From the IMG/VR virus record IMGVR_UViG_3300049617_000207, positions 1 through 64,000 of that record: 64,000 nucleotides of DNA; one strand, 5' to 3'. Shown piece by piece: positions 8,328 through 55,897 of the stretch (its first letter is position 1; each line of letters opens with the position of its first letter). The stretch comes from a virus. Position numbers and translations under genes: made by a program. Below the pieces are notes generated by a model. That model was not told where the DNA came from and made no database searches. It saw nothing but the letters and a program-made list of their open reading frames with translations.

Positions 8328-10541
8328 TTACGCCGCGTCCGTCTCGTCGGCGAGGTCGTCCTCGTCGTCGGCGAGGCCCGTGGGCTTGAAGACCGCGACC
8401 GCCTCTTCGGGGGCGCCCGTCGTGATCGCACCGGACTCGTCTATCGTATACGGCACCTTCCAGGTGAGCGCCTCATCGTTGCAACGCACATAGGCGTGCT
8501 CGGGGAAGGTCGCGACGACGCTGAGATAGTGCGGCGCGTCGCCCCCGACCGGGGAAGGCGCGTAGTTGGACGAGCCGGTCTCGCTGTAGGTCGGCGGATC
8601 GGAGCAGCCGGAGCCTGCGCAGACGGGGCCGCGGATGCGCTGCAGCATCTCTTCGTAGGAGCCGGGGAAGTCGGTGAGGGCATCGCCGGGCGCCGGGTCG
8701 TCGCCCTTCATGATGTCGCCGATGGTGAGCGCCTTATCCCACGGGCCATGCTCCATGTCGTGTCCGATTTGCACCTGATCGCGGAGCGACTTCCCCGCGA
8801 GCGGCGAGGGCTTCTTGCCGGTCGACGCCGCCTTGGTTTTTTCGTGGTGATCGGTCACGCGTTGGAGCAGGCCCTTGAGGCGCGAGGTGTCGAGGTCCTT
8901 ATTCCCGTGCGCGACGTTCGAGCTTCCGAGATGCGTGCCGTCGTGCGCGTAGGCGTGCCGCTCGTGCGAGTATTTCGCGGTTTGGTGTTTCGAGACGTGC
9001 CCGATGTGGTTGCCCTGGTCGTCGTGCAGGTGATAGTTCTCGTGCATCGTCTTGACCGGCTCGCCCGAGAAGCGGTCGACATGCGCCTCTTTTTTGCGCG
9101 CGACTTTGATGCCGTACTTCGTGCCGGACGATGATTTAATCGTGCCGCTGTACCCGTTGCCCGCGGTGAATTGGCCGGTCGAGGGATCGTGCGCCGTCCC
9201 CTCGCCCTTCATGATGTCTTCGAGCGTAAGCGGCATGATGTCCCCTATCGTTAGCGATTTTTCGTATCCGGCGGCCTCGCGCGCGGTCTGCGTTGACTTA
9301 CTGCGTTTGATCGTACCGCGGAAATGTTCGAGCGCCACGGCGCGCGCGGCGTGTTCGGTGTGCTCCGCATCCGGCCCGCCGGGAGAGTTTACCGACGTGA
9401 CGACCTTCGGCTTTTTGCCCCCGGTGTAGACGCCCTCATGGATCGTACGCCCGCGGTCGGCCTTGTGCTCGACGTGGCCGACCTGGGTGCCTGTATGATC
9501 GTCGTGGACGGTGACGCCCGTCGCGTGCGGCTTGAAGGTGTAGGATCGCTTGGTTTTCGCAAGCGTCATCCCGCCGCCCGCGTGATTGATCCGCTTCGTG
9601 CCCGTCGCGACGAATTTGCCGTCCTCGCCGTGCGCGTGCCCGGCATCGTCGGCCTTCATGATGTCCGCAAGCGTGAGCGACTTCTCGGTAGGCGGCGTGT
9701 AACCCGTATCGGTGAATCCGGCCGCGCGCGCCTCCTCGACGTGCTCGGGCCGGTACGTCTTCTTTGCGGTAAAGGTGACGTCATTCGGATGTAAAGCGGC
9801 AAGCCTCTTGATTGACGCTGCGGCCTTGTTCGCCTTCTTGTGAGACTTGATCGCAGCGTTGATTTCTAAACTACGGTCGCGCCCGTCGTTGCGGTGTAGT
9901 GCGACGGCAAGCGGTACGGCTGCGTGCTCGGCCGTTACGTGCATACCTTTGGCGAGTGCCTGTTTAATATACGCTTCGTGCCGCGGGCCGCCGCACGCGT
10001 CGAAAATAAACGACGATCCCTCGTCGAGCGCCTTCGCGAGACGGGACTTCGCGATGTGGCTCGACAGTTCGTGCGTGATTCCGTCGGCGAAGTGCTCGTG
10101 ATCCGCCAGGCCGTCCTTCTCGCGCAGGTACTTGCCGAACGAGGCGACGTCGGGAAACTCGGTATTCTCCCGCACGTGAGCTTCGAGCGCGGCGCGAAGC
10201 TCCGGCGGATAGGCGGCAAGCTCCGCGTTCGTGCGCGGGCCGGACGAACCGTAGCCCTTGCCGTCACCTTCGCGGTTGCTATAACCGGGGATCGACTGTT
10301 TGATCGCGTCGGGCTCGATGACGTTGGTGATACCGAGCCGCTCGGCCATCTCTTTTGCCAGGCGGCCCTTGCCGCTGCCCGCGCCGCCGATAGTAAAGCC
10401 CGCGTGACGAATCGGCGCCGTCTTGGGCGCCGCCTTCGCAGGCTTCGCGCCGCCGCCGGTGTTGCCAAAGCGGCCGTCGGCGCCGTGCTCGTGGCCGACC
10501 GCGTCGCGTGCCTTAAAAATGTCTTCCAGCGTCCGATGCAA
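8328..10541 (-). CDS. multidomain protein with zeta-toxin/P-loop kinase domain and TLADIMK linkers
   Basis: A 737-residue product. The start is TTG at 10541 with AAGGAGGG nine bases upstream. It begins with a linker (LEDIFKARDAVGHEHGADGR), then a P-loop kinase domain at about 45-285 with Walker A GGAGSGKG and a DACGG segment, close to zeta-toxin/UDP-GlcNAc kinase-type folds. Further TLADIMK/TIGDIMK linkers at about 295, 435-445 and 610 separate two small beta-rich His-rich domains and an acidic C-terminal domain that ends in a run of Asp/Glu. It probably acts as a virion-carried effector. The domain call is by motif; the other domains were not recognised. Confidence 0.65.
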   Translation of the reverse strand: MHRTLEDIFKARDAVGHEHGADGRFGNTGGGAKPAKAAPKTAPIRHAGFTIGGAGSGKGRLAKEMAERLGITNVIEPDAIKQSIPGYSNREGDGKGYGSSGPRTNAELAAYPPELRAALEAHVRENTEFPDVASFGKYLREKDGLADHEHFADGITHELSSHIAKSRLAKALDEGSSFIFDACGGPRHEAYIKQALAKGMHVTAEHAAVPLAVALHRNDGRDRSLEINAAIKSHKKANKAAASIKRLAALHPNDVTFTAKKTYRPEHVEEARAAGFTDTGYTPPTEKSLTLADIMKADDAGHAHGEDGKFVATGTKRINHAGGGMTLAKTKRSYTFKPHATGVTVHDDHTGTQVGHVEHKADRGRTIHEGVYTGGKKPKVVTSVNSPGGPDAEHTEHAARAVALEHFRGTIKRSKSTQTAREAAGYEKSLTIGDIMPLTLEDIMKGEGTAHDPSTGQFTAGNGYSGTIKSSSGTKYGIKVARKKEAHVDRFSGEPVKTMHENYHLHDDQGNHIGHVSKHQTAKYSHERHAYAHDGTHLGSSNVAHGNKDLDTSRLKGLLQRVTDHHEKTKAASTGKKPSPLAGKSLRDQVQIGHDMEHGPWDKALTIGDIMKGDDPAPGDALTDFPGSYEEMLQRIRGPVCAGSGCSDPPTYSETGSSNYAPSPVGGDAPHYLSVVATFPEHAYVRCNDEALTWKVPYTIDESGAITTGAPEEAVAVFKPTGLADDEDDLADETDAA

Positions 10542-10572
10542 CCCTGTCGCCCTCCTTGGCGCACGAGGTCCG

Positions 10573-10773
10573 TTAGGTCGTGGGTTTCACGCGGACCATC
10601 TCGCCATCCGTGAGCGTGTAGGATTCGACCTTTCCGGCCCGGAGGTCGGCGTCGAGTTGCTTTTCCCACGGCTGTACGGGCTCGGGCTTCGCGAGCGGCG
10701 CGAGCCGGTCGTACGCTGCCGCGGCCTTTTTATCGTAGGTCGGTTTCGGGTTAGGAGTCTTGTCTGTTTCCAT
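10573..10773 (-). CDS. hypothetical small protein
   Basis: 66 residues, Lys/Pro-rich N-terminus with a helical charged remainder. No family was recognised. It lies between two polyvalent-type genes; the ATG is at 10773, overlapping the end of the upstream gene. Confidence 0.5.
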   Translation of the reverse strand: METDKTPNPKPTYDKKAAAAYDRLAPLAKPEPVQPWEKQLDADLRAGKVESYTLTDGEMVRVKPTT

Positions 10774-11350
10774 CGTGTGTCACCTCCTTCACGTATTCGA
10801 TAAGCGCCGGGAAGGCACCCGCGCCATGCACGTGCCCGGTCGCGTCGCGCGCTTTGGCGACCGCGCCAGGCAGCGCGTAGTGCGCGCGGATCGCCTTCAC
10901 CGCCGTCGCTCGATCCGAGAACGCCAGCGTGTGCGCGCCAAGCGCCCCGTGAACGGTATGCACCGTGAGCTTGCCGACGTTTTGCTCGGGCCGCAGCGTG
11001 CCCGTGATGCCGCACGTCGGACACGTCACGACCGCCGGGCCTGTGTGATCGCCCAGGGTGAGCGGGCGGATACCGACGTTGTCGTCGCCTTCGTTGTGGC
11101 GCTCCGGCAGGGCCGACACGTGCGGCGCCGGTGCCGTGATGATGCCGTTACCCCGCGCGCTGTAGTAGGACGCAGAGCCGTCTTTGAGCGAGAGCAGGCG
11201 GCCCGCATCGGGCGGGCGGATGCGGCCACCGGCGGGGTGCGCGCCGACCGCAATGGCCTGCCCCGGCCGCAAGGGCGCGGGCTCGGGCGGCATCGCTTTC
11301 GCGAGCGCGCGGGTGGCGCGAGCGTGCGTCTCGCGCAGCGTCTCGATCAT
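10751..11350 (-). CDS. stand-alone copy of a zinc-ribbon module found inside the giant protein
   Basis: 199 residues. Residues 1-165 match, in order, a module at about 1,520-1,680 of the giant protein: RxHAxATRALAK, RPGxAIxV, a DAGR segment, PLTxGD, CPxCGxTGT, HTVxGALG and FSDRAxA. The CPTCG ribbon contributes two Cys. The C-terminus has a worn copy of the linker (DATGHVHGAG). This is a clear internal duplication, so modules can exist as separate proteins. Function is unknown. Confidence 0.65.
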   Translation of the reverse strand: MIETLRETHARATRALAKAMPPEPAPLRPGQAIAVGAHPAGGRIRPPDAGRLLSLKDGSASYYSARGNGIITAPAPHVSALPERHNEGDDNVGIRPLTLGDHTGPAVVTCPTCGITGTLRPEQNVGKLTVHTVHGALGAHTLAFSDRATAVKAIRAHYALPGAVAKARDATGHVHGAGAFPALIEYVKEVTHDGNRQDS

Positions 11351-11691
11351 GGCGCGGCCTTGGGATCGGGCGGCGTTCCGAACCGGCCGAAGCGGTCGAT
11401 GGGCGTCTCGGGCGGGTAGTGTTCGAGCCCGAAGAGCGTCGGCGTCCGCTGCAAGAGATAGTAAGCGAAGTCCTCGGGGAACCGCGCCGGGGGCGGGGTG
11501 CCGTGTGGCATGGCCGCAGCGACGGCGGCGAGGTAGCCCCCGACCGTTGTCGTCGGCGCATGGACCTCGTAGGGGTCATATATCGTCTCGCGGCCGTCAC
11601 GCGGGTACGTGGCGCTGCCGGAATTGGACATACCCTCCGGCAGCCACGTGCGCTGCCACTCCCCCGGATCATTCTTGCGTATTTGTATCAT
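11347..11691 (-). CDS. hypothetical protein
   Basis: 114 residues starting MIQIRKNDPGEWQ. The sequence is Pro/Tyr-rich with several aromatic motifs, no known family. A sigma-70 promoter immediately upstream (11702-11731) makes this the first gene of a separately transcribed unit. Confidence 0.6.
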   Translation of the reverse strand: MIQIRKNDPGEWQRTWLPEGMSNSGSATYPRDGRETIYDPYEVHAPTTTVGGYLAAVAAAMPHGTPPPARFPEDFAYYLLQRTPTLFGLEHYPPETPIDRFGRFGTPPDPKAAP

Positions 11692-11701
11692 AGCACCTAC
11701 C

Positions 11702-11731
11702 ACTATACTTTATCGCGCGCAGGAAAGTCAA
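11702..11731 (-). promoter_or_regulatory. sigma-70 promoter, TTTCCNGCGCGC family
   Basis: In the minus direction: TTGACT, an 18-base spacer that starts TTCCTGCGCGCG, then TATAGT. It overlaps the stop codon of the giant gene and fires into the 11347-11691 gene, only about 10 bases before that ATG. Confidence 0.75.
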
Positions 11732-14700
11732 GCAGTATAGGCCGACGTTGTCGGCATCGCGACCGTCGCGCCACTCGCATCGTGAAGGAGTGGGTCGGTT
11801 GCCGTCCGCTTCACGCCGAATAGTTCGGCGAGCTTTGCGGCCGTTTCTTTGCGCACTTGAGCAAGTCCACGGTTAAATTCTCCCCACTTGGTCGGGTAGC
11901 CGGTTTCATCCGTCACGCTCCCGGCGTTGTCGAGCACGATTTCCGAAAGACCGATTGCCCAATCCTCTTGGTAGTCGCCTTGCAGCGTATCGTAATTGTC
12001 GCCGGGGGCGGGGCGCTCGAAGTCTTTGGAGTTGTACGCGTGGTCGGTGATGAAGGCACGGATCGAGCGCATCGCGTGCCCGGTGCCGTCGGCGTTATGC
12101 ACGATTTTTACGTTCGGCTCGGTGGTCGTGCCCTTGACCTTCGCGCGCATCCACTTGTTAAACGCCTTCATCTCCTTGCCGAGCGAGCTTCGCGACATCG
12201 CGTGGCAGTATTCGTGGATGAGCGTCCGGTCGCTCCAATCGTGTCCGTTGAAGCTCCCTTTATTCCAGAGACCGACGCCGACCGTCACGAGGCCGGTCTG
12301 CGGAAACGCGAAGCCGCCGTACGGCGTGCCCTCTTTCATGTGATGAAACGAGAGCGTCGTGCCCATGCCGCTGCGCGTCATCGGGCCGAACGTATCGGTG
12401 AGCGTCTTGTCGACGTGCTCGATTTCCGCCATCGAGAGCCCGTGGACGCCGGTGTAACCCTCCTGCGCGCCCAATCTCCCCGCCCCGCCCCATAAAGGAA
12501 ACGCGTCCTCGCCCTCGTCGATGAGGTTTGTGTTGTGAATAAACATCATCGCCTCGCGCGCGACGACCCGGTCAAACGCCGCGTTATGGACGCTGCCGAG
12601 TTTCTTGACCGCCTCGGCCACGGTCTTTGGCTTTATTTCGGCGATGCGGGCGGCGATGTGGCGGGTCTTGCGAATGTAGTCGCGCCGAGCGTCGTCGTCG
12701 GCAAGGTTCTTAATTTTTTGCAGGCGCGCGCTCTCGTAATACATATTCGGAGACTGCGCACGTGCCGCGCCGCGCGACTGCGGGGTCGCGTCCGAGTTGT
12801 TGAGCGTCCCCTCCGTTAAGCTCACGGAGTATCCAACATTACTTTGTAGAAGCGTAATATAGTCTTTTAGTCTATCCGCAGGAACGCTCGCGAGCGCCTC
12901 ATCGCTATCCCACCGATGCAGGCCGTCCGCGGCGGGAGTCCATGTGTCGTGCCCGCCGTAAGTAACAGGCGGGATGGTCTCGCCAAAGAACCGCGCAATG
13001 GGCGAGTATTCGATAGGATTCATCGGCGCACGCGCGCGCGACATTTCGCGGTCGTTGCGCTTCGGTTTGTCGGACTTCGGTTTTGCCGTCGAAGCGGGCG
13101 CCTCGAATTGAAATTCGGTCGCCCATCCGTTTTCGAGCCGACCCATCCCATCGTCGCCGTACGCGGTATCGTTGCAGCGAGTCGGCTTGCCGAATATCGT
13201 AATAGCGGCGTCTAGCTCGCGCTTGTTCGTGAAGCCGTCGATGTTGAGGCGCACGGCACCCTGCTTCTTCTTCGCCTCTTTGGAGAGTGCGGAAAAGACG
13301 TCGTGCAGCGCGCTCTCGTTGCTTGCATAATACGCCTTAAACTTGCAATAGAGACTTTGGTCGACACGCTGGACACTCGCGTCGCCGCTATCGCCTACGT
13401 CGAGATGGACGACGCCGTCGTCGTCGGTGGTCCGCTTGACGCTCGGCCCGGCCGCTGCCGGAGCGGCGGCAGGCTCCGGCTCGTCATCATCGTCGCCCGC
13501 GGCGGCGCCCCCGCCGCCCTGCGAGACGAAGCGGCCGTCGTTGCCGTGATCGTGGCCGACCTCGTCGCGCACCTTCCGCATGGTCGGCGCGGCGGCGTAG
13601 TGATTGCGCACGGCCTCGGTTGCGCTCGCACGATCCGAGAAGATGCGGTCCCCGTGCCCGAGCGCGCCTTTGACGGTGTGCAGGCCCGCGTTGTCCTTCT
13701 GCGGCTCAATCGTGCCGGTGACACCACACTTCGGGCACACGACGACGGCCGAGCCCTCGGGATCGCCGACGGTGAGCGGCACGATGCGGACGTGCCCGTT
13801 GCCCTCATCGGTGCCCTCGGGCTCTTGCACGTGCGAGACGTGTTCGGCCGAGACCGACGCAACGGCGCCCGAGCCCGCGCTATGGTAGGTGACGACGTGG
13901 CCTCCCAGGAGACTCGTGTCCGTGCGCAGCGCGCGCCCGGCGTCGGTCGGCATCGCCATGCCTGCCGCGATGTGCGGCGCGACGTGGATCGCATCGCCCG
14001 GCCGGACCTGTGCGAAGGACTTCGCGAGCGCGCGCGTGGCCGCCGCGTGGACGCGCGAGAGCGGGGTTGCCATCTTTTCCGTGTCCTTCTCTTCCGGCTT
14101 CCAGGCCATCGCTTCGTGTGCGGGCTTCCATAGGTCGTGGTATTCGTTTTGGACGCCGCCGGAGTAGTCCGTCGCGAAGCGCGTGAGCTTGGGATCGAAC
14201 CCCGCGATGACGTCGAGCGGGGCGTCGCGATAGACTTCCCATAACCGGCGCATGTGCTTTTGACCCGCGAGCGACTCGCGCGCTAAGGCGATGTCCTCTT
14301 TCGAGGCGGGCCTTCTCGGCGTGGTCCCTCGGCGGCTGTAGTCCGGGGTGAGGTAGTCGGGTGCCGAGATTTCGTCGAGGTGCTCCTCCCGGTGTGCGAT
14401 TTCCCGGTCGATGTTCTTGAGATGCTTCGGGGCGGCGAGCTTCGCCTTATGCGCGCGGTCGGCATCGGAGACCATCTTTTTCGAGGTCGCCATGTCCATG
14501 CCGTGACCCGCGAGGAGTTTTTGGGCGCACCCGCTTCCGACCAGGCCGCCCGGCTCGACTTCGTAGACGACGTGATGGAGCTTGCCGCATCGGTCGCACT
14601 CGCGCGGCTCGGTGGAGTCGTTGCCTTCGCCCTTCTTCTCTTCATCGGTGCGCAGGTCGTAGCGCGCGACGATCCGCGGCGGCTTGTCGGCCTTTGCGCC

Positions 14701-17700
14701 GCCGCCGCCGGAGGTGAAGCGGCCGTCGTCGCCGTGCTTGTTTCCGTCGTCGTCCACGACCTTCATGATGTCGGCGAGCGTGAGCGCCTTCTCGGTCTCG
14801 TCGGGCTCGTCGAGGTCGACCACGACCTTCGCGGGGAACGAGGTCGCGCCGAGCAGCCGGAGCGCGTTGAAGCGGTGACTGCCTTCGAGCACGTACGGCC
14901 CGTCATGCGCCTGCACGACGATCATCGGGTCGAGTTGCTTACTATCCGCAATCGCCGCGGCTAACGCCTCCGTGCGCTCCTTCTCCGATTTCGAGTAGAA
15001 GCTCGGCGGCCTGCTCACGTCACCAAACGCGGACATGGGCACCTCGCGGATGCCCGGCACAAGCTCGTAGTTGTCGAGCGATGCGCCGATAGACTCGAAA
15101 TTCGCAATCGTCTCGCCGACCTCGCGCCCATCGACGACGTCGCCCACATGAATCCGCGGATACTTCCCGGCCGCCGCAACGGTTGCCTCATCCTTGTCTT
15201 CGAGGCCGGTCTTGGGAGGCGGCTCCGCGACCTTGGGCTTCTCGGGGACCGGCTCGTGTGCGCCCCACCCGAGCGGCTCGCCCGTCTCGCGTTCGATAGC
15301 CGCCTTGATCGCGTGCGCGTCCATATCGCGCGCCGGGTTGATCCACGTGAGCACGCCGTTGGTCACGATGGCGGTGCCGCTCGCGCTGCCCTTGACGTTG
15401 AAGTTGTAAACGACGCCGCCGCGAGGCCCCTTCCCGAGCTTGACGGTAACGCCCTCGGGTATGCCGGTCTTACTCGCGGTCGCGGCTTTCGCGCCGCCCC
15501 CCGTGTTACCAAACCGCCCGTCGGCGCCGTGCTCGTGGCCGACCGCGTCGCGCACCTTCATGATGTCGGCGAGCGTGAGCGCCTTCTCGGTCTCGTGCCG
15601 CGCGATTGCAACGCCGTCGGAGTCGGAGGGCACGCCAACCGACGCCGGGCTAAAGAAACCCGTGCTGCCGACGTCTTCCGCCTTCACGCCGTCGGGCAGC
15701 GAGAGTGGCTGCGTGTCGTTGTTCGAGAGCGACGCGCGCTGGCCGAAAGCCGGGGCATGCGTGTACCCGAGCCGCCGGAGCGCCTCGACGCGGTGGTTCC
15801 CCTCGCTCACCGCCTGCGCCGGGCCGTCGGCGTGATCGGGGTCGACGCTGACCTCTACCGGCTCGCGCAGCCCTTCCTTGGAAACGCTGTCCATTATGGA
15901 CTTGATACGTGCCTCGGACGAATCCTCTCCCGTGTCGTTTCCAGCGATGCGCTTGAGATGCGCGAGCGGCACGAGGCTGACTGCTCCTTTGTCCGCGGGG
16001 TACGACGTCTGCCAATCGCCACCGGGCGAGGTCCATTTTCCGCCCTCGTCGCGCGGCTCCCCGCTCACGTCGTGGACGTGGCCCTTCATGATGTCCGCGA
16101 GCGTGAGCGCCTTCTCGGTCTCGGGCTCGGCATCGTGAATCTTATGCGCGACGACCGCGCCGCCGCGCGCGTGCATCTTCCACGCGCGCGTGACCTTGTC
16201 GAGCCCGATTGGCTTCGGCGCCTTGTAGTAGTAATCGCGTTTATCTTGCGGCGTCTGCTCCGGGTCGTGCTTAATCTCGATCATATAGGTCGGCTTGCCG
16301 GTGACGCGCGGATCGTCGCGGCCATAATTGGCGTACCCCTCGGCGCTTGGCGCGTTATCGTCGAAGCACGTGCCTTCGCTCTTGTCGCTATAGGCGCCCG
16401 AGCTTTGGATGAATCCGGCCTTCTTGTGCGCCTCGAATTCATCGGAGGTCATGCCGCGATAGAGATGCCCCGGCCGCGTCATCTCGCCGACGGCGTCGTT
16501 TCCGGCCTTCCACCCGTCCGGCCGAATCTCCACGCCGCCCGGATCGTCGGGCTTGACGTCCTCCGAGCCCGCGGCGAACCCGTCGCCTGCTGGCCCATTG
16601 CCTGCCGCGCTCGCGCCGGTGCGGCTTTCCCATAACTTATTTCCCTCGGGAGTGCGGTGCGTCGGGCTCGGCTTTAGCTTTGAGCCAAGTTCGCTCTCGA
16701 TGTGGTCATACAAAGCACTCGCAACGCCCTTGCGCCGGTACGCGGGGTCGACCGTCACGCTCGTCACGTAGCTTTTGTCGTCGCTAAGATTAACGCGCGC
16801 AATCTCTTTCGGCGGCGTAACCCCGAATTTCGTCTTCACCGGCTCGCCAATGGTCGCAACGTAGGTGCCGTCGCACGGACTCGATATTTTCGCGCCGTCC
16901 GGCAGATGTTTTCCGCCGCCCGCGCCGCCGGTCGTCCACTTCCCACCCTCGTCGCGCGTTTCGCCGCTAACGTCGTGCTCGTGGCCTTTCATGATGTCCG
17001 CGAGGGTTAGCGCCTTCTCCGTGGGCGCGTCCTCGGGCTTCGGCAGGTCGGCAAGCGGCGTGCCCGGCCCCTTCCCGCGCGCCGCCATCTCCGCCTGATA
17101 CACCTTGCCCGCAATCGGATGCGGGAGTTGCGCCGCACCCTTGAGATACGACGTCCCCCCGCCCGCGTTGCGCAAGGCGAGGTAAAGCTCGGTCTGCGCC
17201 GGGGTCATCGCAACACCGAAATACTTCGCGCGCGGCGTCGTCGTCTCTTGAATGACGCCGTCGCGCTCGATCCACGAGTGCCGCACCCACAGGCCCGACT
17301 CATCCGCCGCGTAGCCCGTGAAGAGCTTGTTCTTCTCGGGGTCGTCGAGGTGCGCGATGGCCGAGTTTTGGTGGCAGTTGTTATGCCCGAATTGGCCTGT
17401 GATTTGCACGGCGCTCGCGCCCGAGTGGTAGGCGCCGTCGCGCAGGATCATCGTGTTGTCGGGGTCTTTTGGGTCCTGGCTGATATAGACCGCATGGCCG
17501 CCGTGATCGAGAATCTTATCGCGCAGCGCCGCGAGGTTTTTGGCGCGGTTGGGCGGGACGTTGGGGATCGGCGCGCCCTTCGTGTCGCCCTGGCGCGTGA
17601 AGCGCGCGACCTCACGCGCAGACATGGCCTCGAAGCCCGCGTGCGCCGCGCCCGCGCCGCCTCCCCCGGCCGTCCACTTACCGTCGGCGTCGCGCGCTTC

Positions 17701-18630
17701 GTCGGCAGCCTTCGCGACCGGCTTCTTCACGAACGGGCTAAGGTCGACGGTCTCCGAGGTGCCGTATTTGTCGTGGGTGATAATCCCGTCGAAGCCGTCC
17801 TTGACGATAGCCGCAGAGAGCGCCTTGCCCGTCTTGCCGTAGTGCGCGGCGAGCACGCTCTTCCAATTCGTCGCGTGCCCGTACTCGCCGCCGAACGGCA
17901 TCACGATAGGCGATTTGAAGTGCGCCGTGCCCGTCTCGTAGTTGCGCTCCTTAAACCACGCGTCGTCTTCTTGCATGTTCGTGCGCTCGGAGAGGTAGCG
18001 CCCGTGCGGCTCGATGTCCTGGCCGAAGCCGCCGGTGTTCTTGGGCGCCTTCTCGGTGTTGCGCATGTACGGGAACGCCGTCGGCGCGCCGTGTTTGTAG
18101 CCGCCGCCGTCGGTTCCCTTAAACGCGTCGTCGCTCGGAAAATAGCCCTGCTCGTGGATCGAGTCGGCGTTCCCGAACAGGTGCCGCGCCTTGACCTTCT
18201 TCGAGGCTATCGTGTATTCGCCGTTAAGCGCAGACTCGCCGTGCATTTTCGCGTAGTCGCGATTTATCGTCACCCAATCGTTCGGGTTTATCTCGGCCTT
18301 GACTCCTTTCGGCAGCGCGCGGTAAGCCGTCACCATCGCATCCGGGTTCCCGCGCACGCTCTGCAGCACGCGCAACGTGTTGCGGTCGAGCGCGTCGTCG
18401 CCGGTCCCGTAATACTGCATCGCGTCTTTGGAATAAATGTCGGGGATCGCCGTGTCGAGGTCGTGTAACGGCGCGGCGCCGCCGTCCTGCTTCATCGGGC
18501 GATGTTGCCCGGCGTACGAGGTCGGCTCACCACCGCCGCCGCCCGCACCCGCCGTCCACTTCCCGCCATCATCACGGTCTTCGCCCGAGACGTCGTGCTC
18601 GCGGCCCTTCATGATGTCGGCGAGGCTCAT
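11728..18630 (-). CDS. giant polyvalent protein: strings of ART, peptidase, GNAT, ParB, zinc-ribbon and zincin domains
   Basis: About 2,300 residues from an ATG at 18630 that overlaps the MuF stop. Domains, by motif and with rough positions: ADP-ribosyltransferase-like 60-310 (DWVTINRDYAK; GFDGIITHD); papain-like peptidase 325-530 (Cys in GHNNCHQNS, His in RHSW); GNAT 570-680 (RRKGVASAL); second ART-like 715-825 (LYRGMT); ParB-like 860-985 (GNHRVEALRRLG); unknown 1040-1130; ParB-like 1140-1270 (LEGSHRFNALRLLG); zinc ribbon 1310-1460 (CDRCG, GSGC); module shared with the 10751 gene, 1520-1680 (CPKCG); unknown 1720-1830; zincin metallopeptidase about 1900-2290 (HEYCH near 2140, Glu in GLSE near 2228). 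TLADIMK linkers separate most of them. Known context: polyvalent proteins of phages and plasmids are thought to enter the host with the DNA and counter host defences. Separation by proteolysis is inference. Confidence 0.75.
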   Translation of the reverse strand: MSLADIMKGREHDVSGEDRDDGGKWTAGAGGGGGEPTSYAGQHRPMKQDGGAAPLHDLDTAIPDIYSKDAMQYYGTGDDALDRNTLRVLQSVRGNPDAMVTAYRALPKGVKAEINPNDWVTINRDYAKMHGESALNGEYTIASKKVKARHLFGNADSIHEQGYFPSDDAFKGTDGGGYKHGAPTAFPYMRNTEKAPKNTGGFGQDIEPHGRYLSERTNMQEDDAWFKERNYETGTAHFKSPIVMPFGGEYGHATNWKSVLAAHYGKTGKALSAAIVKDGFDGIITHDKYGTSETVDLSPFVKKPVAKAADEARDADGKWTAGGGGAGAAHAGFEAMSAREVARFTRQGDTKGAPIPNVPPNRAKNLAALRDKILDHGGHAVYISQDPKDPDNTMILRDGAYHSGASAVQITGQFGHNNCHQNSAIAHLDDPEKNKLFTGYAADESGLWVRHSWIERDGVIQETTTPRAKYFGVAMTPAQTELYLALRNAGGGTSYLKGAAQLPHPIAGKVYQAEMAARGKGPGTPLADLPKPEDAPTEKALTLADIMKGHEHDVSGETRDEGGKWTTGGAGGGKHLPDGAKISSPCDGTYVATIGEPVKTKFGVTPPKEIARVNLSDDKSYVTSVTVDPAYRRKGVASALYDHIESELGSKLKPSPTHRTPEGNKLWESRTGASAAGNGPAGDGFAAGSEDVKPDDPGGVEIRPDGWKAGNDAVGEMTRPGHLYRGMTSDEFEAHKKAGFIQSSGAYSDKSEGTCFDDNAPSAEGYANYGRDDPRVTGKPTYMIEIKHDPEQTPQDKRDYYYKAPKPIGLDKVTRAWKMHARGGAVVAHKIHDAEPETEKALTLADIMKGHVHDVSGEPRDEGGKWTSPGGDWQTSYPADKGAVSLVPLAHLKRIAGNDTGEDSSEARIKSIMDSVSKEGLREPVEVSVDPDHADGPAQAVSEGNHRVEALRRLGYTHAPAFGQRASLSNNDTQPLSLPDGVKAEDVGSTGFFSPASVGVPSDSDGVAIARHETEKALTLADIMKVRDAVGHEHGADGRFGNTGGGAKAATASKTGIPEGVTVKLGKGPRGGVVYNFNVKGSASGTAIVTNGVLTWINPARDMDAHAIKAAIERETGEPLGWGAHEPVPEKPKVAEPPPKTGLEDKDEATVAAAGKYPRIHVGDVVDGREVGETIANFESIGASLDNYELVPGIREVPMSAFGDVSRPPSFYSKSEKERTEALAAAIADSKQLDPMIVVQAHDGPYVLEGSHRFNALRLLGATSFPAKVVVDLDEPDETEKALTLADIMKVVDDDGNKHGDDGRFTSGGGGAKADKPPRIVARYDLRTDEEKKGEGNDSTEPRECDRCGKLHHVVYEVEPGGLVGSGCAQKLLAGHGMDMATSKKMVSDADRAHKAKLAAPKHLKNIDREIAHREEHLDEISAPDYLTPDYSRRGTTPRRPASKEDIALARESLAGQKHMRRLWEVYRDAPLDVIAGFDPKLTRFATDYSGGVQNEYHDLWKPAHEAMAWKPEEKDTEKMATPLSRVHAAATRALAKSFAQVRPGDAIHVAPHIAAGMAMPTDAGRALRTDTSLLGGHVVTYHSAGSGAVASVSAEHVSHVQEPEGTDEGNGHVRIVPLTVGDPEGSAVVVCPKCGVTGTIEPQKDNAGLHTVKGALGHGDRIFSDRASATEAVRNHYAAAPTMRKVRDEVGHDHGNDGRFVSQGGGGAAAGDDDDEPEPAAAPAAAGPSVKRTTDDDGVVHLDVGDSGDASVQRVDQSLYCKFKAYYASNESALHDVFSALSKEAKKKQGAVRLNIDGFTNKRELDAAITIFGKPTRCNDTAYGDDGMGRLENGWATEFQFEAPASTAKPKSDKPKRNDREMSRARAPMNPIEYSPIARFFGETIPPVTYGGHDTWTPAADGLHRWDSDEALASVPADRLKDYITLLQSNVGYSVSLTEGTLNNSDATPQSRGAARAQSPNMYYESARLQKIKNLADDDARRDYIRKTRHIAARIAEIKPKTVAEAVKKLGSVHNAAFDRVVAREAMMFIHNTNLIDEGEDAFPLWGGAGRLGAQEGYTGVHGLSMAEIEHVDKTLTDTFGPMTRSGMGTTLSFHHMKEGTPYGGFAFPQTGLVTVGVGLWNKGSFNGHDWSDRTLIHEYCHAMSRSSLGKEMKAFNKWMRAKVKGTTTEPNVKIVHNADGTGHAMRSIRAFITDHAYNSKDFERPAPGDNYDTLQGDYQEDWAIGLSEIVLDNAGSVTDETGYPTKWGEFNRGLAQVRKETAAKLAELFGVKRTATDPLLHDASGATVAMPTTSAYTA

Positions 18631-19541
18631 CGCGGCACGTCGTACCGGCTGCTCACGTCGAGCGGGTCGCCGACTTTGTACGGAAGCCAGGCACAACGGC
18701 ATTGCGGGTGCAGAGGAATTGTCGCAACCCAGGCAGTTTGTTTAATACCGTAGTTACTGCGCCCGATAAGATCGGCCACGCGATAGACCTTACCGTCGAT
18801 AAGTTCGAGACAACGGTCGCAACATTTATCATCGTGTGCCGACGACCCTATTGTTAGCTCTAAGCCCGCGTCCTCGAATTCGCGCAGCCGTCCGACGCTT
18901 TCGGCGCGCGACGTTTCCGTGATCGCGATGCGTCCCCACGCCGTTTCGCGGTCCTTTAGCTCGTTCTCGATCCGGCGCGAGATGACTTTTGGGTTCTCCC
19001 CGTTTTGCATGCCGTCGATGAGCATGCGCCGCAGGTCGGCCTTGAGGTCGTTAAACGAGTCGTCGATTTCGTTAAAGGTCGTATGTTCGAGGAATCGTAT
19101 CGCGCGCCCATCGGTAGGCAGGAGCGGCCGGTGCAACGGTTTCGCGAGCGCCTCGCTCGCAAGCATTTGCCCAAGCGCGTACGCGCGCATGGGATGCGTC
19201 GCTAACTCGAAAAACGCGTGCCGCCGCCATTCCTCGATGGGCTCGTCCATTTGCCAAGGGTCTATCCCCTCCCACGATTCATGTTTGTCGAAGAGTTGGT
19301 TCACAAGTTCGGTGACGCTCGCGAACGCGCGCTTCTGCCCGGCCGTGAGCGCGTCGTAAAACGCCTTCTCTTGTCGGCCGATTTCAGGATCGCCGTGGTT
19401 GCCGGGGAATTTCCCCTCGGCCTTCGCGAGCGTGCGCTCGGGGTAGCCCCATATCCGCTGCATGGTTTTCGCGAGCGCGCGCGGGTTGGGCGAGCCCGTA
19501 AGGACGCAGAGCGCAAATTCCGCTTCGAGGGCGGCGTGCAA
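18627..19541 (-). CDS. MuF/SPP1 gp7-type head morphogenesis protein
   Basis: About 304 residues from a TTG at 19541. The C-terminal half carries the family pattern: RIAITETSRAES at about 201-212, a CCDRC...DGKVY segment at about 238-250, and the closing HPQCRC at about 277-282. MuF-type proteins are minor head proteins bound at the portal and often carry C-terminal effectors. Here the effector string is a separate, translationally coupled gene just downstream. Confidence 0.85.
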   Translation of the reverse strand: MHAALEAEFALCVLTGSPNPRALAKTMQRIWGYPERTLAKAEGKFPGNHGDPEIGRQEKAFYDALTAGQKRAFASVTELVNQLFDKHESWEGIDPWQMDEPIEEWRRHAFFELATHPMRAYALGQMLASEALAKPLHRPLLPTDGRAIRFLEHTTFNEIDDSFNDLKADLRRMLIDGMQNGENPKVISRRIENELKDRETAWGRIAITETSRAESVGRLREFEDAGLELTIGSSAHDDKCCDRCLELIDGKVYRVADLIGRSNYGIKQTAWVATIPLHPQCRCAWLPYKVGDPLDVSSRYDVPR

Positions 19542-47881: not shown

Positions 47882-47926
47882 GATGTCGGGGTGTGCTTTC
47901 TGCGGGCCTTCGCTCGCGACTCGCTT

Positions 47927-47955
47927 ATCGTACACCCTGCGCGCTGGAAAGTCAA
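47927..47955 (-). promoter_or_regulatory. sigma-70 promoter, GGTGCCCC/TTCCAGCGCGC family
   Basis: TTGACT, 17-base spacer TTCCAGCGCGCAGGGTG, TACGAT. A GGGGCACC box sits seven bases upstream of the -35. Confidence 0.85.
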
Positions 47956-47971
47956 TGCGACAGGTGCCCCG

Positions 47972-48548: not shown

Positions 48549-48554
48549 GCGCCT

Positions 48555-48583
48555 ATCGTACGCCCTGCGCGCTGGAAAGTCAA
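48555..48583 (-). promoter_or_regulatory. sigma-70 promoter giving a leaderless mRNA
   Basis: TTGACT, 17-base spacer TTCCAGCGCGCAGGGCG, TACGAT, then AGGCGC and ATG. GGGGCACC seven bases upstream of the -35. With a start site about 7 bases past the -10, transcription begins at or next to the ATG. Confidence 0.85.
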
Positions 48584-48599
48584 TGCCGGAGGTGCCCCG

Positions 48600-49783: not shown

Positions 49784-49789
49784 GCGCCC

Positions 49790-49818
49790 ATGCTACACCC
49801 TGCGCGCTGAAAAGTCAA
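49790..49818 (-). promoter_or_regulatory. sigma-70 promoter giving a leaderless mRNA
   Basis: TTGACT, 17-base spacer TTTCAGCGCGCAGGGTG, TAGCAT, then GGGCGC and ATG. GGGGCACC seven bases upstream of the -35. Nearly identical to the promoter at 48555. Confidence 0.85.
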
Positions 49819-49834
49819 TGCCGGAGGTGCCCCG

Positions 49835-52154: not shown

Positions 52155-52204
52155 GTGGGTCGTGTCCTTTGGGCGCATCTCGCGCCCGGTGTCGGGGTGC
52201 CTTC

Positions 52205-52233
52205 ATGCTACGCTTTGCGCGCTGGAAAGTCAA
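52205..52233 (-). promoter_or_regulatory. sigma-70 promoter, GGTGCCCC/TTCCAGCGCGC family
   Basis: TTGACT, 17-base spacer TTCCAGCGCGCAAAGCG, TAGCAT. GGTGCCCC seven bases upstream of the -35. The leader is about 45 bases before ATG 52154. Confidence 0.85.
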
Positions 52234-52284
52234 GCGCATCGGGGCACCTCTCCGTCACTCGTCGCATACGAGGGCACGAGGGGA

Positions 52285-52345: not shown

Positions 52346-52499
52346 TTAGAAGACGTCGGTGTCGAGCGCCCGGCGCGCGTCCGCGTAGGCCGCGAACGCG
52401 ACCTCGGCGCCGCGCGCCTCGCGGCAGAATCGCTCGCCGCTCTTGGGATCGTAGGCGTGGCCGCAAGCCGGGAAGGTCGGGCACTCGTACGCGTACCAT
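52346..52499 (-). other. coding-like frame without a normal start codon
   Basis: In the minus direction a frame reads WYAYECPTFPACGHAYDPKS and ends with DTDVF and TAA. It looks like a small Cys/His zinc protein, but it has no ATG, GTG or TTG between the TGA inside the promoter and the frame. The only nearby ATG (52500) is in a different frame with Arg-rich content. Either an unusual start, a frame change, or a decayed gene. Confidence 0.4.
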
Positions 52500-52522
52500 G
52501 ATACGCCCTGCGCGCTGGAAAG

Positions 52523-52526
<4 letters not shown>
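52498..52526 (-). promoter_or_regulatory. sigma-70 promoter, TTCCAGCGCGC family
   Basis: TTGACT, 17-base spacer TTCCAGCGCGCAGGGCG, TATCAT. AGTGCCCC lies six bases upstream. It drives the short unit that ends at the 52285 terminator. Confidence 0.8.
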
Positions 52527-53236
<710 letters not shown>

Positions 53237-53240
<4 letters not shown>

Positions 53241-53452
53241 GGCGCCCGCTTGAGGTAGTCGAAGACGCCTTGCCGGGCGAGGTCGCTGTAGCGTTGCGTG
53301 CCGAACATCGGCCGCCCGCACGCCGAGCACGCGTACCATCCGACGTGCTCCGGCGCCCCCGGCCGCAGGAGCGTGAAGCCAAGCGGCGCCTCATCGACAC
53401 GCGCCACCGGCAGCACGTGGCGCCCGAAGAGACAACGCACGGCCTGCAGCAC
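53237..53452 (-). CDS. hypothetical small zinc protein
   Basis: 71 residues. CSACGRPMFGTQRYSDLARQ supplies a CxxC pair; an upstream Cys and His (CLFGRHV) may complete the site. The TGA overlaps the GTG of the broken deoxyribosyltransferase gene. Confidence 0.55.
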
Positions 53453-53715
53453 TACGGGTCCTCCTCGCTGCGGAACGCGCGGTCGGCGCCGTCCTCATCG
53501 TCGGGGTCGACGGGCTCGATCCCGTAGCCGACGATAGTGCCGCGCGTGGCGTGCTGCGGGATCATCCGCTTGAGCTTGGCCTCGGCCTCCGTGAACGGCA
53601 TCTCCGTCGAGAGCACCGCTGCAACGCGGACCTGCGCGCCTTGGAGGTCGTCGCCGCGGCCGAGATAGACGACGAAGAGCCGGTAGAGGTGCGTCGTCTC
53701 GTCGGGCGCGCTCAC
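53452..53715 (-). CDS. hypothetical protein
   Basis: 87 residues from GTG 53715, which overlaps the stop of the displaced gene end (53712). The sequence is acidic, alpha/beta, ending in DRAFRSEEDP. No family was recognised. Confidence 0.55.
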   Translation of the reverse strand: MSAPDETTHLYRLFVVYLGRGDDLQGAQVRVAAVLSTEMPFTEAEAKLKRMIPQHATRGTIVGYGIEPVDPDDEDGADRAFRSEEDP

Positions 53716-53801
53716 TTACGCACCGGCCGCGGCGCGCCTGGCGCATAGCCCCCGGCGAGCACCTCGCGCAGTTGCGCGATAGCCGTGGCGCCCGTGATGT
53801 G
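53712..53801 (-). pseudogene. displaced 3' end, homologous to the end of the 55070 gene
   Basis: The frame HITGATAIAQLREVLAGGYA then PGAPRPVRK and TGA matches the C-terminus of the 55070 gene (HISGSVAISQLRDVLSGGYA, PGAPRPRR) at about 20 of 28 positions, with many synonymous differences. It begins about 20 bases after the TnpB stop, has no start of its own, and is coupled to the 53452 gene. It looks like the original 3' end of the target gene, cut off by the TnpB element. Confidence 0.7.
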
Positions 53802-55069
53802 CTTTCGATGTGTGCGTCCTTTAGGCAGCATTTTCACGCCTCCCGAGCCGGGTGCCCCCCGGCGATAACTCACTTAAAAGCGCCAACTGCGCTCGCCCTA
53901 GGATATTCCGCGCGGCGTTCACGTCGGCGTGGTCGCGATGACCACACGCTACGCAAACGAACCGCACGCCATCCCGATTCTCCGGCGCGACGTGCGCGCA
54001 CTCGGCGCACGTCCGCGACGTATTCCTTGGATTCACGCTAACGACTACGCGAGCGGCACATGCTGCCTTCTCGCGGATTAACGTGACCAATGTTCCCCAT
54101 GCAACATCCCCGATGCTACGATTAAGGCTCGACTTCGCCGCGACGTTCGTGCCCGGCTTCTCGACTGTACCTCTCGCCGACCGCATCATGTTTCGCACGG
54201 TGAGAGCTTCGACCGCGATGCCGTCATACGCGTTCACGATCCGGCGCGAAAGTTTATGCAGCGCGTCACGTCGTGCGTTCGCCTCGCGCTCCCGAGCCCG
54301 CGCCAATCGTCCTACCGCCGCCGCCCGCGCCGGGTCCTTCCAATTCACACAACGGCCCAGGCTGTCCGTTGCGGTACGCTTGGCGACAACGCGCGAGGCG
54401 ACCGCCACGCGCTCCGCTCGCTTGGCGAGATGACGCGGATTCGTGACAAGTTCCCCGTCCGAAGTGGCGGCCAACACGGTCACGCCAACGTCAAGTCCGA
54501 CGACGGCGCCGGTGCGCGGGAGCGGCTCAACCTCGCGGTTGCACTCGAATATCGCGTGCCAACGCCCATTCTTCTCGACCACGAAGGCACGACCGAACGC
54601 GGGAATGGGCCGCCCCTTCCGCATGGTGATCGTGCCAACGCCGGGGACTCGCACTTTCGTCTGCGCCGCGTTGAATTGGAAGTAGCGGTCGCCGTGCGAA
54701 ACCTCGATTTGATTCCAGCGTGAGGCTGCACGATAGCGCGGGAACCCACGCCCCTTGCCTTCCTTAACCCGGCGGAAGAACGCCGCGAAGGCGAGGTCGA
54801 GCCGGTGGAGAACCGCGTCCTGGCACTCCCGATGAATCGCCTTTACGCCAGGATCGTCGGCCCGTAACGCGGTCAACTCTGCAGACTGCATCTTTACGGA
54901 CACCGTAACGCGGCGCATCCGGTACGCGTCTTTTCGCTCTTGCAGCGCCGCGTTGTAAAGATTCCTAGTGGCGTGCAGGACGTGCCAAAGTCTTCGCTCC
55001 TGTGAAGCGGACGGGTATAAGCGAACCTTGTGCATCCAGCGCATATTCTCTACCACTAAGTATAACACA
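53802..55069 (-). mobile_element. IS605-type TnpB cassette (no TnpA)
   Basis: This is the segment between two homologous gene ends. It holds a full TnpB gene and little else. The 3' end of tnpB contains a GCCGGG...CCCGGC hairpin near 53860 (region of the guide-RNA scaffold in this family). The exact left and right ends were not found; the boundaries given are the limits of flanking homology. Confidence 0.65.
53821..55044 (-). CDS. tnpB: TnpB RNA-guided nuclease
   Basis: About 407 residues from ATG 55044 (an inner ATG at 55035 is possible). The three RuvC acidic residues are present: VVGLDVGVTV (Asp), YDGIAVEAL (Glu) and HADVNAARNI (Asp). The zinc ribbon CAECAH...CVACGH is intact. TnpB uses an RNA derived from its own right end to cut matching DNA next to a transposon-adjacent motif. 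No tnpA is present, so spread would rely on homing-type repair or a transposase elsewhere. Confidence 0.9.
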   Translation of the reverse strand: MRWMHKVRLYPSASQERRLWHVLHATRNLYNAALQERKDAYRMRRVTVSVKMQSAELTALRADDPGVKAIHRECQDAVLHRLDLAFAAFFRRVKEGKGRGFPRYRAASRWNQIEVSHGDRYFQFNAAQTKVRVPGVGTITMRKGRPIPAFGRAFVVEKNGRWHAIFECNREVEPLPRTGAVVGLDVGVTVLAATSDGELVTNPRHLAKRAERVAVASRVVAKRTATDSLGRCVNWKDPARAAAVGRLARAREREANARRDALHKLSRRIVNAYDGIAVEALTVRNMMRSARGTVEKPGTNVAAKSSLNRSIGDVAWGTLVTLIREKAACAARVVVSVNPRNTSRTCAECAHVAPENRDGVRFVCVACGHRDHADVNAARNILGRAQLALLSELSPGGTRLGRRENAA

Positions 55070-55354
55070 CTAGCGTCGCGGGCGGGGGGCGCCAGGTGCG
55101 TAGCCGCCCGACAGGACATCTCGTAACTGCGAGATGGCGACCGAGCCGGAAATGTGCTCGGGCATCCGCTGCCAATGCGTCACGAGGAGCTTCGCCTGCT
55201 CGACGATCCGCGCGTCGGCCTGCGAGAAGAGCATCGTGTCGAGCCCGGCGAGGATCGCCCCGCGAAGCTCCGGCTGCTGAATCCGCTCCGCGACCGTGCG
55301 CGCCGTAGCAATCGCCTGCTGCGCCGGGGTCGGCTCGACCGTCATCTTACTCAT
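55070..55354 (-). CDS. hypothetical protein, target gene of the TnpB cassette
   Basis: 94 residues. Helical: TPAQQAIATARTVAERIQQP, LLVTHWQRMPEHISGSVAIS. It ends PGAPRPRR. A second, diverged copy of its last 28 residues lies beyond the TnpB cassette (53712-53801). The function is unknown. The ATG lies in the divergent region with ssb. Confidence 0.6.
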   Translation of the reverse strand: MSKMTVEPTPAQQAIATARTVAERIQQPELRGAILAGLDTMLFSQADARIVEQAKLLVTHWQRMPEHISGSVAISQLRDVLSGGYAPGAPRPRR

Positions 55355-55465: not shown

Positions 55466-55897
55466 TTGCCTAGTTTCAACCACATAACGCTCGTGGGCAA
55501 TCTCACGCGCGACCCCGAGATTCGCTACGTCGACGGCGGCGGCAAAGCCGTTACCAAGTTTTCGCTTGCCATAAATCGCAAGACCAAGGGCGCCGACGAA
55601 ACCATGTTTATCGACATCGTCGCATGGGATCGCCTGGGCGAAGTCTGCAATCAGTATCTCAAGAAGGGCGACCCCGCGCTCATCTCTGGACGCCTCGCCA
55701 TTCGCAAGTACGACGACAAGGATGGCAATAAACGCACGGCCGTCGAGGTCGTCGCAAGCGACATGCAGATGCTCGGAACCAAACGCGATGCCGCGGCACC
55801 GGCACCGGCACGTAGCGGCGCAGGCGGCGGATACGCACCGGCGAGCGGCGGCCGCACGGAAGAGGAAGAGGATGCTTTCGACGACATTCCCTTCTAG
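55466..55897 (+). CDS. ssb: single-stranded DNA-binding protein
   Basis: 143 residues starting with TTG 55466 behind AAGGAGG. OB-fold hallmarks: ITLVGNLTRDPEIRYVDGG (8-26), KFSLAINRK, FIDIVAWDRLGEVC, ISGRLAIRKYDDKDGNKR, VVASDMQML. Gly-rich linker, then the acidic tip DAFDDIPF that recruits partner proteins. It coats ssDNA during phage replication and recombination. Confidence 0.97.
   Translation: MPSFNHITLVGNLTRDPEIRYVDGGGKAVTKFSLAINRKTKGADETMFIDIVAWDRLGEVCNQYLKKGDPALISGRLAIRKYDDKDGNKRTAVEVVASDMQMLGTKRDAAAPAPARSGAGGGYAPASGGRTEEEEDAFDDIPF

What the first reader, a model, noticed from the sequence alone, without database searches (positions are those of the whole stretch)
53712..55354. TnpB cassette that appears to restore the 3' end of its target gene
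Seen: the 55070 gene is intact and ends PGAPRPRR. Right after it comes a TnpB cassette; right after the cassette comes a second copy of the last 28 codons (53712-53801) with about 20 of 28 residues identical but many synonymous changes and no start. Known: TnpB cuts DNA matching a guide taken from the flank of its right end. Inference: the cassette arrived with a diverged copy of the target's 3' end, keeping the gene working while the original end was displaced. The recoding would also protect the restored copy from the guide. This is homing logic like that of elements that rebuild the gene they invade.
Basis: partly seen in the sequence, partly recalled or inferred. Interest (0 to 1): 0.75.

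Follow-up and report, generated by a model that had tools for sequence, protein, structure and literature searches.

The report
TnpB beside a duplicated gene end
In an uncultured phage, an intact RNA-guided DNA-cutting gene (TnpB) lies between two clearly related but heavily diverged copies of the same gene ending; the layout matches fungal mitochondrial selfish endonucleases that bring a replacement end for the gene they invade, but no TnpB-free relative could be found to prove it.

Summary
Gene A (55070-55354, minus strand, 94 aa) is intact. An intact 407-aa TnpB (53821-55044) starts 25 nt after its stop. After TnpB lies a second copy of A's last 28 codons: 21/28 residues identical, only 6 codons identical, 15 changed synonymously, 64% DNA identity. 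None of 37 other TnpB loci tested shows this. The downstream copy is in frame and its TGA overlaps the GTG of the next operon gene, so it looks like the native end. One correction: it does have a possible start, an ATG at 53831 behind GGGAGG, overlapping the TnpB stop.

It fits the fungal mitochondrial 'mobile ORF' pattern, in which an endonuclease carries a foreign C-terminus for its target gene (PMC3630166: 63.5% DNA identity between atp6 copies, against 64% here). I favour that reading at about 0.5. The rival, a tandem paralogue truncated by TnpB insertion plus deletion, is almost as likely. The deciding test, a TnpB-free relative, failed: gene A has no detectable homologue in any collection searched, including the three records that share the phage's capsid protein. 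The element's right end, guide and TAM could not be fixed. Active recoding against the guide is not shown.

The parts
55157..55354 (-). Gene A, first 66 codons ('body'); first gene of a minus-strand operon, divergent from an SSB gene (55466-55897 +)
   Evidence: Intact ORF; codon usage phage-like, GC3 0.90. AlphaFold single-sequence model, four helices, mean pLDDT 70.7. No homologue found in Pfam, PHROGs, NCBIfam or PADLOC.
55070..55156 (-). Last 28 codons plus TAG of gene A ('A end'): proposed incoming replacement 3' end
   Evidence: 75% amino-acid but 64% DNA identity to 53718-53801; encodes the predicted last helix (residues 70-82) and the Pro-rich tail; codon usage weakly atypical for the phage.
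55045..55069 (-). 25-nt spacer between gene A stop and TnpB ATG, with a TATACT -10-like box; presumed left end of the cassette
   Evidence: Sequence, GC 0.32. No sigma-70 promoter passes the consensus scan.
53821..55044 (-). TnpB RNA-guided endonuclease, 407 aa, apparently intact (RuvC D-E-D and zinc ribbon align with ISDra2 TnpB)
   Evidence: NF040570 guided_TnpB E 4e-68; PF01385, PF07282, PF12323; PDB 8bf8 E 1.8e-27 with catalytic residues aligned. Not called as phage-like by codon usage.
53802..53960 (-). Probable 3' part of the omega/reRNA: overlaps the TnpB 3' end and runs up to the displaced gene end; exact RNA end not determined
   Evidence: Fold z = -2.39, none of 200 shuffles as stable. 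Hairpin spacing resembles the closest TnpB relatives. No IS605-type terminal hairpin with GGnnGTCAA.
53712..53831 (-). 39-codon ORF made of the TnpB/gene junction plus the displaced end: ATG behind GGGAGG, TGA overlapping the next gene's GTG
53712..53801 (-). Displaced (native-looking) gene end, 29 codons plus stop; candidate guide region CACATCACGGGCGCC...
   Evidence: 8 of the first 20 nt differ from the A end; no other match in the window with up to 3 mismatches
53452..53715 (-). 87-aa operon gene whose GTG start overlaps the displaced end's TGA (GTGA); no known family

Best explanation
A TnpB cassette entered the 3' part of a single phage gene together with a diverged homologue of that gene's last ~28 codons. 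The gene kept working as a hybrid (native body plus foreign end), and its original end was pushed downstream of TnpB. The likely route is homing. TnpB carries a guide copied from the sequence just after its right end (the native gene end). It cuts TnpB-free alleles in a co-infecting related phage, and repair from the TnpB-bearing phage copies in TnpB plus the flanking diverged gene end. The hybrid gene differs from the candidate guide at 8 of 20 positions and so should escape cutting. Shown here: the two diverged copies, their order, the intact TnpB, and coupling of the displaced end to the next gene. Inferred: which copy is foreign, the homing route, the guide and the immunity. How the cassette first captured a gene end is unknown.
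For: Two copies at 75% amino-acid and 64% DNA identity, with conserved frame and synonymous sites near saturation: both were held under selection in functional genes while diverging, so the displaced copy was a working gene end until recently. Its TGA overlaps the GTG of the next gene, and the two following junctions are equally tight (TAGTG, GTGA), so it sits where the native end belongs. TnpB is intact and foreign in codon usage. The A end is less phage-like than the A body (2.7% of comparable phage windows; permutation p = 0.056). The same architecture and near-equal divergence is published for fungal mitochondrial mobile ORFs (PMC3630166). Homing in phages co-converts flanking sequence (PMC2988022). 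TnpB takes its guide from the flank beyond its right end (PMC8612924) and can drive copies of itself between replicons (PMC11870625).
Against: No empty allele found. No homologue of gene A outside this record. None of the other 37 TnpB loci tested shows a duplicated gene end, so this is a single case. The codon-usage shift is not significant once amino-acid content is normalised (P = 0.146). No recognisable right end, TAM or transposase. Codon differences do not exceed saturation convincingly (P = 0.07).
Confidence: 0.5

Rival explanations
1. Tandem paralogues. The operon held two neighbouring homologous genes, A and B. A TnpB element inserted at the start of B, just after the A stop codon, and a deletion removed its right end and the first two thirds of B, leaving only the B end. 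No restoration, no homing.
For: Gene A's stop reads TAGTG, the same stop/start overlap used at another junction of this operon, as if a gene once began right there. A deletion would explain why no standard right-end hairpin with GTCAA is seen. A second TnpB remnant sits in the same operon, so insertions with decay happen here. Other paralogous modules exist in this phage.
Against: Needs a tandem pair plus an insertion plus a deletion, where the other reading needs one event. No remnant of B's first 66 codons is left. Only a few paralogue pairs exist among 82 called genes, and the adjacent ones are confined to one structural cluster.
Confidence: 0.36
2. The downstream 39-codon ORF is a small native gene, sharing a short C-terminal module with gene A, and TnpB inserted between the two without damage.
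For: It has an ATG behind a good Shine-Dalgarno sequence and is coupled to the next gene.
Against: The ATG and GGGAGG lie inside the TnpB 3' coding sequence, so they came with TnpB, and similarity to A starts 30 nt downstream at CACAT. Only gene A and this copy carry the module in the genome.
Confidence: 0.08
3. Assembly chimera: reads of two phage strains were joined through TnpB.
For: The record is a metagenomic virus contig and mobile genes are common misjoin points.
Against: No near-identical TnpB was found in the viral or genome collections (best about 40% identity). The two gene ends share too little exact sequence for a graph join, and the operon reads on through.
Confidence: 0.05

Closest known systems
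Mobile ORFs of fungal mitochondria (Allomyces macrogynus atp6; Glomus sp. atp6, atp9, cox2, nad3; PMC3630166)
   Same: Endonuclease gene inserted near a gene's 3' end; a foreign, diverged C-terminus completes the gene; the native C-terminus lies downstream of the endonuclease. Glomus atp6 copies share 63.5% DNA identity; here 64%.
   Different: LAGLIDADG or GIY-YIG protein endonucleases, not an RNA-guided one; mitochondria, not a phage. There, relatives without the element prove which end is native; here none was found.
Free-standing homing endonucleases of T4-like phages (Seg/Mob; PMC2988022)
   Same: A nuclease gene between phage genes that can spread with co-conversion of flanking sequence in mixed infection.
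   Different: The review passages read here report flank co-conversion, not a spare copy of the target's end left behind; fixed recognition site rather than a guide RNA.
IS200/IS605 TnpB elements, ISDra2 type (PMC8612924), and TnpB gene drive in plasmids (PMC11870625)
   Same: TnpB protein family, catalytic residues, 3' structured RNA region, guide expected from the right flank.
   Different: No TnpA, no identified left or right end, no TAM; TnpB sits between copies of a host gene end, which normal IS elements do not carry.

Membership tests
TnpB RNA-guided endonuclease | Family profile match above curated cut-off | tested here: met
   NF040570 230 bits against a cut-off of 100; PF01385 and PF07282 above gathering
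TnpB RNA-guided endonuclease | RuvC D-E-D triad and CxxC zinc ribbon | tested here: met
   Aligned to ISDra2 TnpB 8bf8
TnpB RNA-guided endonuclease | Omega/reRNA at the 3' end with guide from the right flank | tested here: inconclusive
   3' region folds better than shuffles, but no right-end hairpin with GTCAA motif; exact end unknown
IS200/IS605 or IS607 transposon | Defined left and right ends and a transposase (own or in trans) | tested here: inconclusive
   25 nt to the left, no right end recognised; no transposase gene in 53-56 kb; transposase in trans not excluded
Mobile ORF with replacement C-terminus (mORF) | Endonuclease ORF placed between two copies of the host gene's 3' end | tested here: met
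Mobile ORF with replacement C-terminus (mORF) | Upstream copy in phase, giving a complete hybrid gene | tested here: met
   Gene A is one open frame of 94 codons
Mobile ORF with replacement C-terminus (mORF) | Element-free relatives end with the downstream (native) copy | not testable with these tools
   No relative holding gene A found
Mobile ORF with replacement C-terminus (mORF) | Endonuclease cuts the element-free allele | not testable with these tools
   needs experiment
Tandem paralogue pair | Second copy homologous over the whole gene | tested here: not met
   Only the last 28-29 codons remain; upstream of 53801 the DNA is TnpB and junction. A truncated pair stays possible

The most novel reading that the evidence does not exclude
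A TnpB, the RNA-guided ancestor of Cas12, acts as a homing element that carries a diverged, guide-resistant copy of its target gene's 3' end. It can then invade a coding gene without killing it: a natural 'rescue gene drive' in a phage.
Probability: 0.35. Interest if true: 0.8.

Novelty: new variant of a known kind. Interest (0 to 1): 0.52.

Why it matters
If true, it would be the first case I know of in which an RNA-guided nuclease carries a rescue copy of the gene it attacks, as laboratory rescue drives and fungal mitochondrial mobile ORFs do. It would extend TnpB's role from keeping a transposon in place to true homing between phages, and would explain how TnpB can sit inside coding genes without harm. 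It is directly testable with a TnpB-free relative and a plasmid interference assay.

Tried and rejected
Relatives: single-protein scans of the viral collection with gene A, the 87-aa gene, the 57-kb gene, the helicase and the terminase gave nothing. The A/B alignment scan gave two loci that are chance matches overlapping other genes. The capsid protein found three related records; the 85-kb one shares structural genes, SSB, terminase and helicase but lacks gene A, and the other two are short. Gene A in phages, plasmids and about 800 genomes of two phyla: only weak, scattered matches. Structure search of gene A: nothing with E <= 0.001. Rfam: nothing above gathering score. A first flank-duplication test was swamped by GC-rich composition and was redone with shuffled controls. 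The idea that the A end was actively recoded against the guide is not supported beyond saturation. Full-text searches found no paper describing a TnpB that restores its target gene.

Full report
What is there. The window is part of a 96,014-base virus record, GC 65.8%. On the minus strand a tight operon starts next to a divergent SSB gene: gene A (55070-55354), TnpB (53821-55044), a partial second copy of gene A's 3' end (53712-53801), an 87-aa gene, a 71-aa gene and a nucleoside-deoxyribosyltransferase-like gene (the last name rests on motifs read by eye). The two gene ends align over 28 codons: 6 identical, 15 synonymous changes, 7 amino-acid changes, DNA identity 54/84. A search of the whole record with gene A finds these two places only, E 3.9e-59 and 5.6e-10.

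TnpB. The protein is 407 aa from ATG 55044. It passes the NCBIfam guided_TnpB cut-off, matches Pfam OrfB_IS605 and Cas12f1-like_TNB, and aligns end to end with ISDra2 TnpB with the catalytic D, E, D and zinc ribbon in register. Relatives are at most about 40% identical: Acidimicrobiaceae, Streptomyces, Arthrobacter, Deinococcus. Its codon usage is foreign to the phage (z -8.3). I found no transposase in the cassette. Only 25 nt separate gene A's stop from the TnpB ATG, and 19 nt separate the TnpB stop from the start of similarity to gene A.

The displaced end. It is in frame, without defects, and its TGA overlaps the GTG of the 87-aa gene; the next two junctions are TAGTG and GTGA. Because synonymous sites are near saturation (6 of 21 codons identical against 9.8 expected for independent codon choice, P = 0.07) while 75% of residues are kept, both copies must have been selected as protein for a long time, so the downstream copy was part of a working gene until recently (inference).

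Is it chance or a general TnpB feature? I compared 240 nt of flank on each side of TnpB in 38 loci from phages, plasmids and genomes, in translated frames with codon-shuffled controls. Only this locus stands out (116 against a null maximum of 56). It is a single case.

Which copy is foreign? The A end is less phage-like than the A body, but after normalising for amino acids 15% of phage windows are as low, and a within-gene permutation gives p = 0.056. This leans towards a foreign A end and is not proof. The model of gene A puts helix 4 and the Pro-rich tail in the replaced part (modest confidence), so losing it would probably matter.

Right end and guide. The 3' part of TnpB folds unusually well (z -2.39). 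Many relatives end in a hairpin followed by GGnnGTCAA or GGTCAC, which this locus lacks; but the closest relatives (L003-L011) also lack it and share the spacing of two hairpins with this locus. Whether the right end is complete cannot be decided. If the guide is the displaced end, the first 20 nt differ from the A end at positions 6, 7, 9, 13 and 15-18, enough to expect protection (inference).

Search for an empty site. Eight viral scans, one genome scan, phage and plasmid searches and about 800 genomes gave no homologue of gene A. The capsid query gave three related records with 89, 81 and 63% identical capsids.

Literature. The layout is the same as that of mobile endonuclease ORFs in Glomus and Allomyces mitochondria, where a foreign C-terminus completes the gene and the native one lies downstream; in Glomus atp6 the two copies share 63.5% DNA identity (PMC3630166). 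Phage homing endonucleases co-convert flanking sequence (PMC2988022), TnpB guides come from the right flank (PMC8612924), and TnpB can act as a gene drive in plasmids (PMC11870625). No paper found describes a TnpB with a replacement gene end.

Verdict. Works like a mobile ORF with a replacement C-terminus: plausible, about 0.5. Membership is not established, because the defining comparison with an element-free relative could not be made. The tandem-paralogue reading stays at about 0.36; chimera and small native gene are minor.

Noticed in passing
window 52984-53190 (+): Second TnpB remnant: zinc-ribbon end only (PF07282, 49% identical to TnpB 1 over 37 aa), followed by a right-end-type hairpin and GTTCAT. 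It lies antisense inside a nucleoside-deoxyribosyltransferase-like gene of the same operon (VKVYVASSWRNDIQPMIV / TVLRAAGHEVYDF), which also has a frameshift further on.
   Followed up: partly
L003, L004, L005, L007, L011: The closest TnpB relatives, in Acidimicrobiaceae MAGs, appear bounded by 13-bp terminal inverted repeats GGGTAGTGGCTCA ... TGAGCCACTACCC, unusual for IS605/IS607-type TnpB elements.
   Followed up: no
window 47926-47958, 48554-48586, 49789-49821, 52204-52236, 52497-52529: Five-copy ~33-nt repeat between genes; on the minus strand it reads like TTGACTTTCCAGCGCGC...GCGTAGCAT, possibly a repeated phage promoter.
   Followed up: partly
window 8328-18702 (-): Very large proteins (up to 2324 aa) built of repeated modules containing LADIMK...GEDRDDGGKWT-like stretches, with paralogy between neighbouring genes.
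   Followed up: no
L082 (Deinococcus sp. QL22 plasmid): A TnpB lies between two annotated HNH-endonuclease genes on opposite strands.
   Followed up: no
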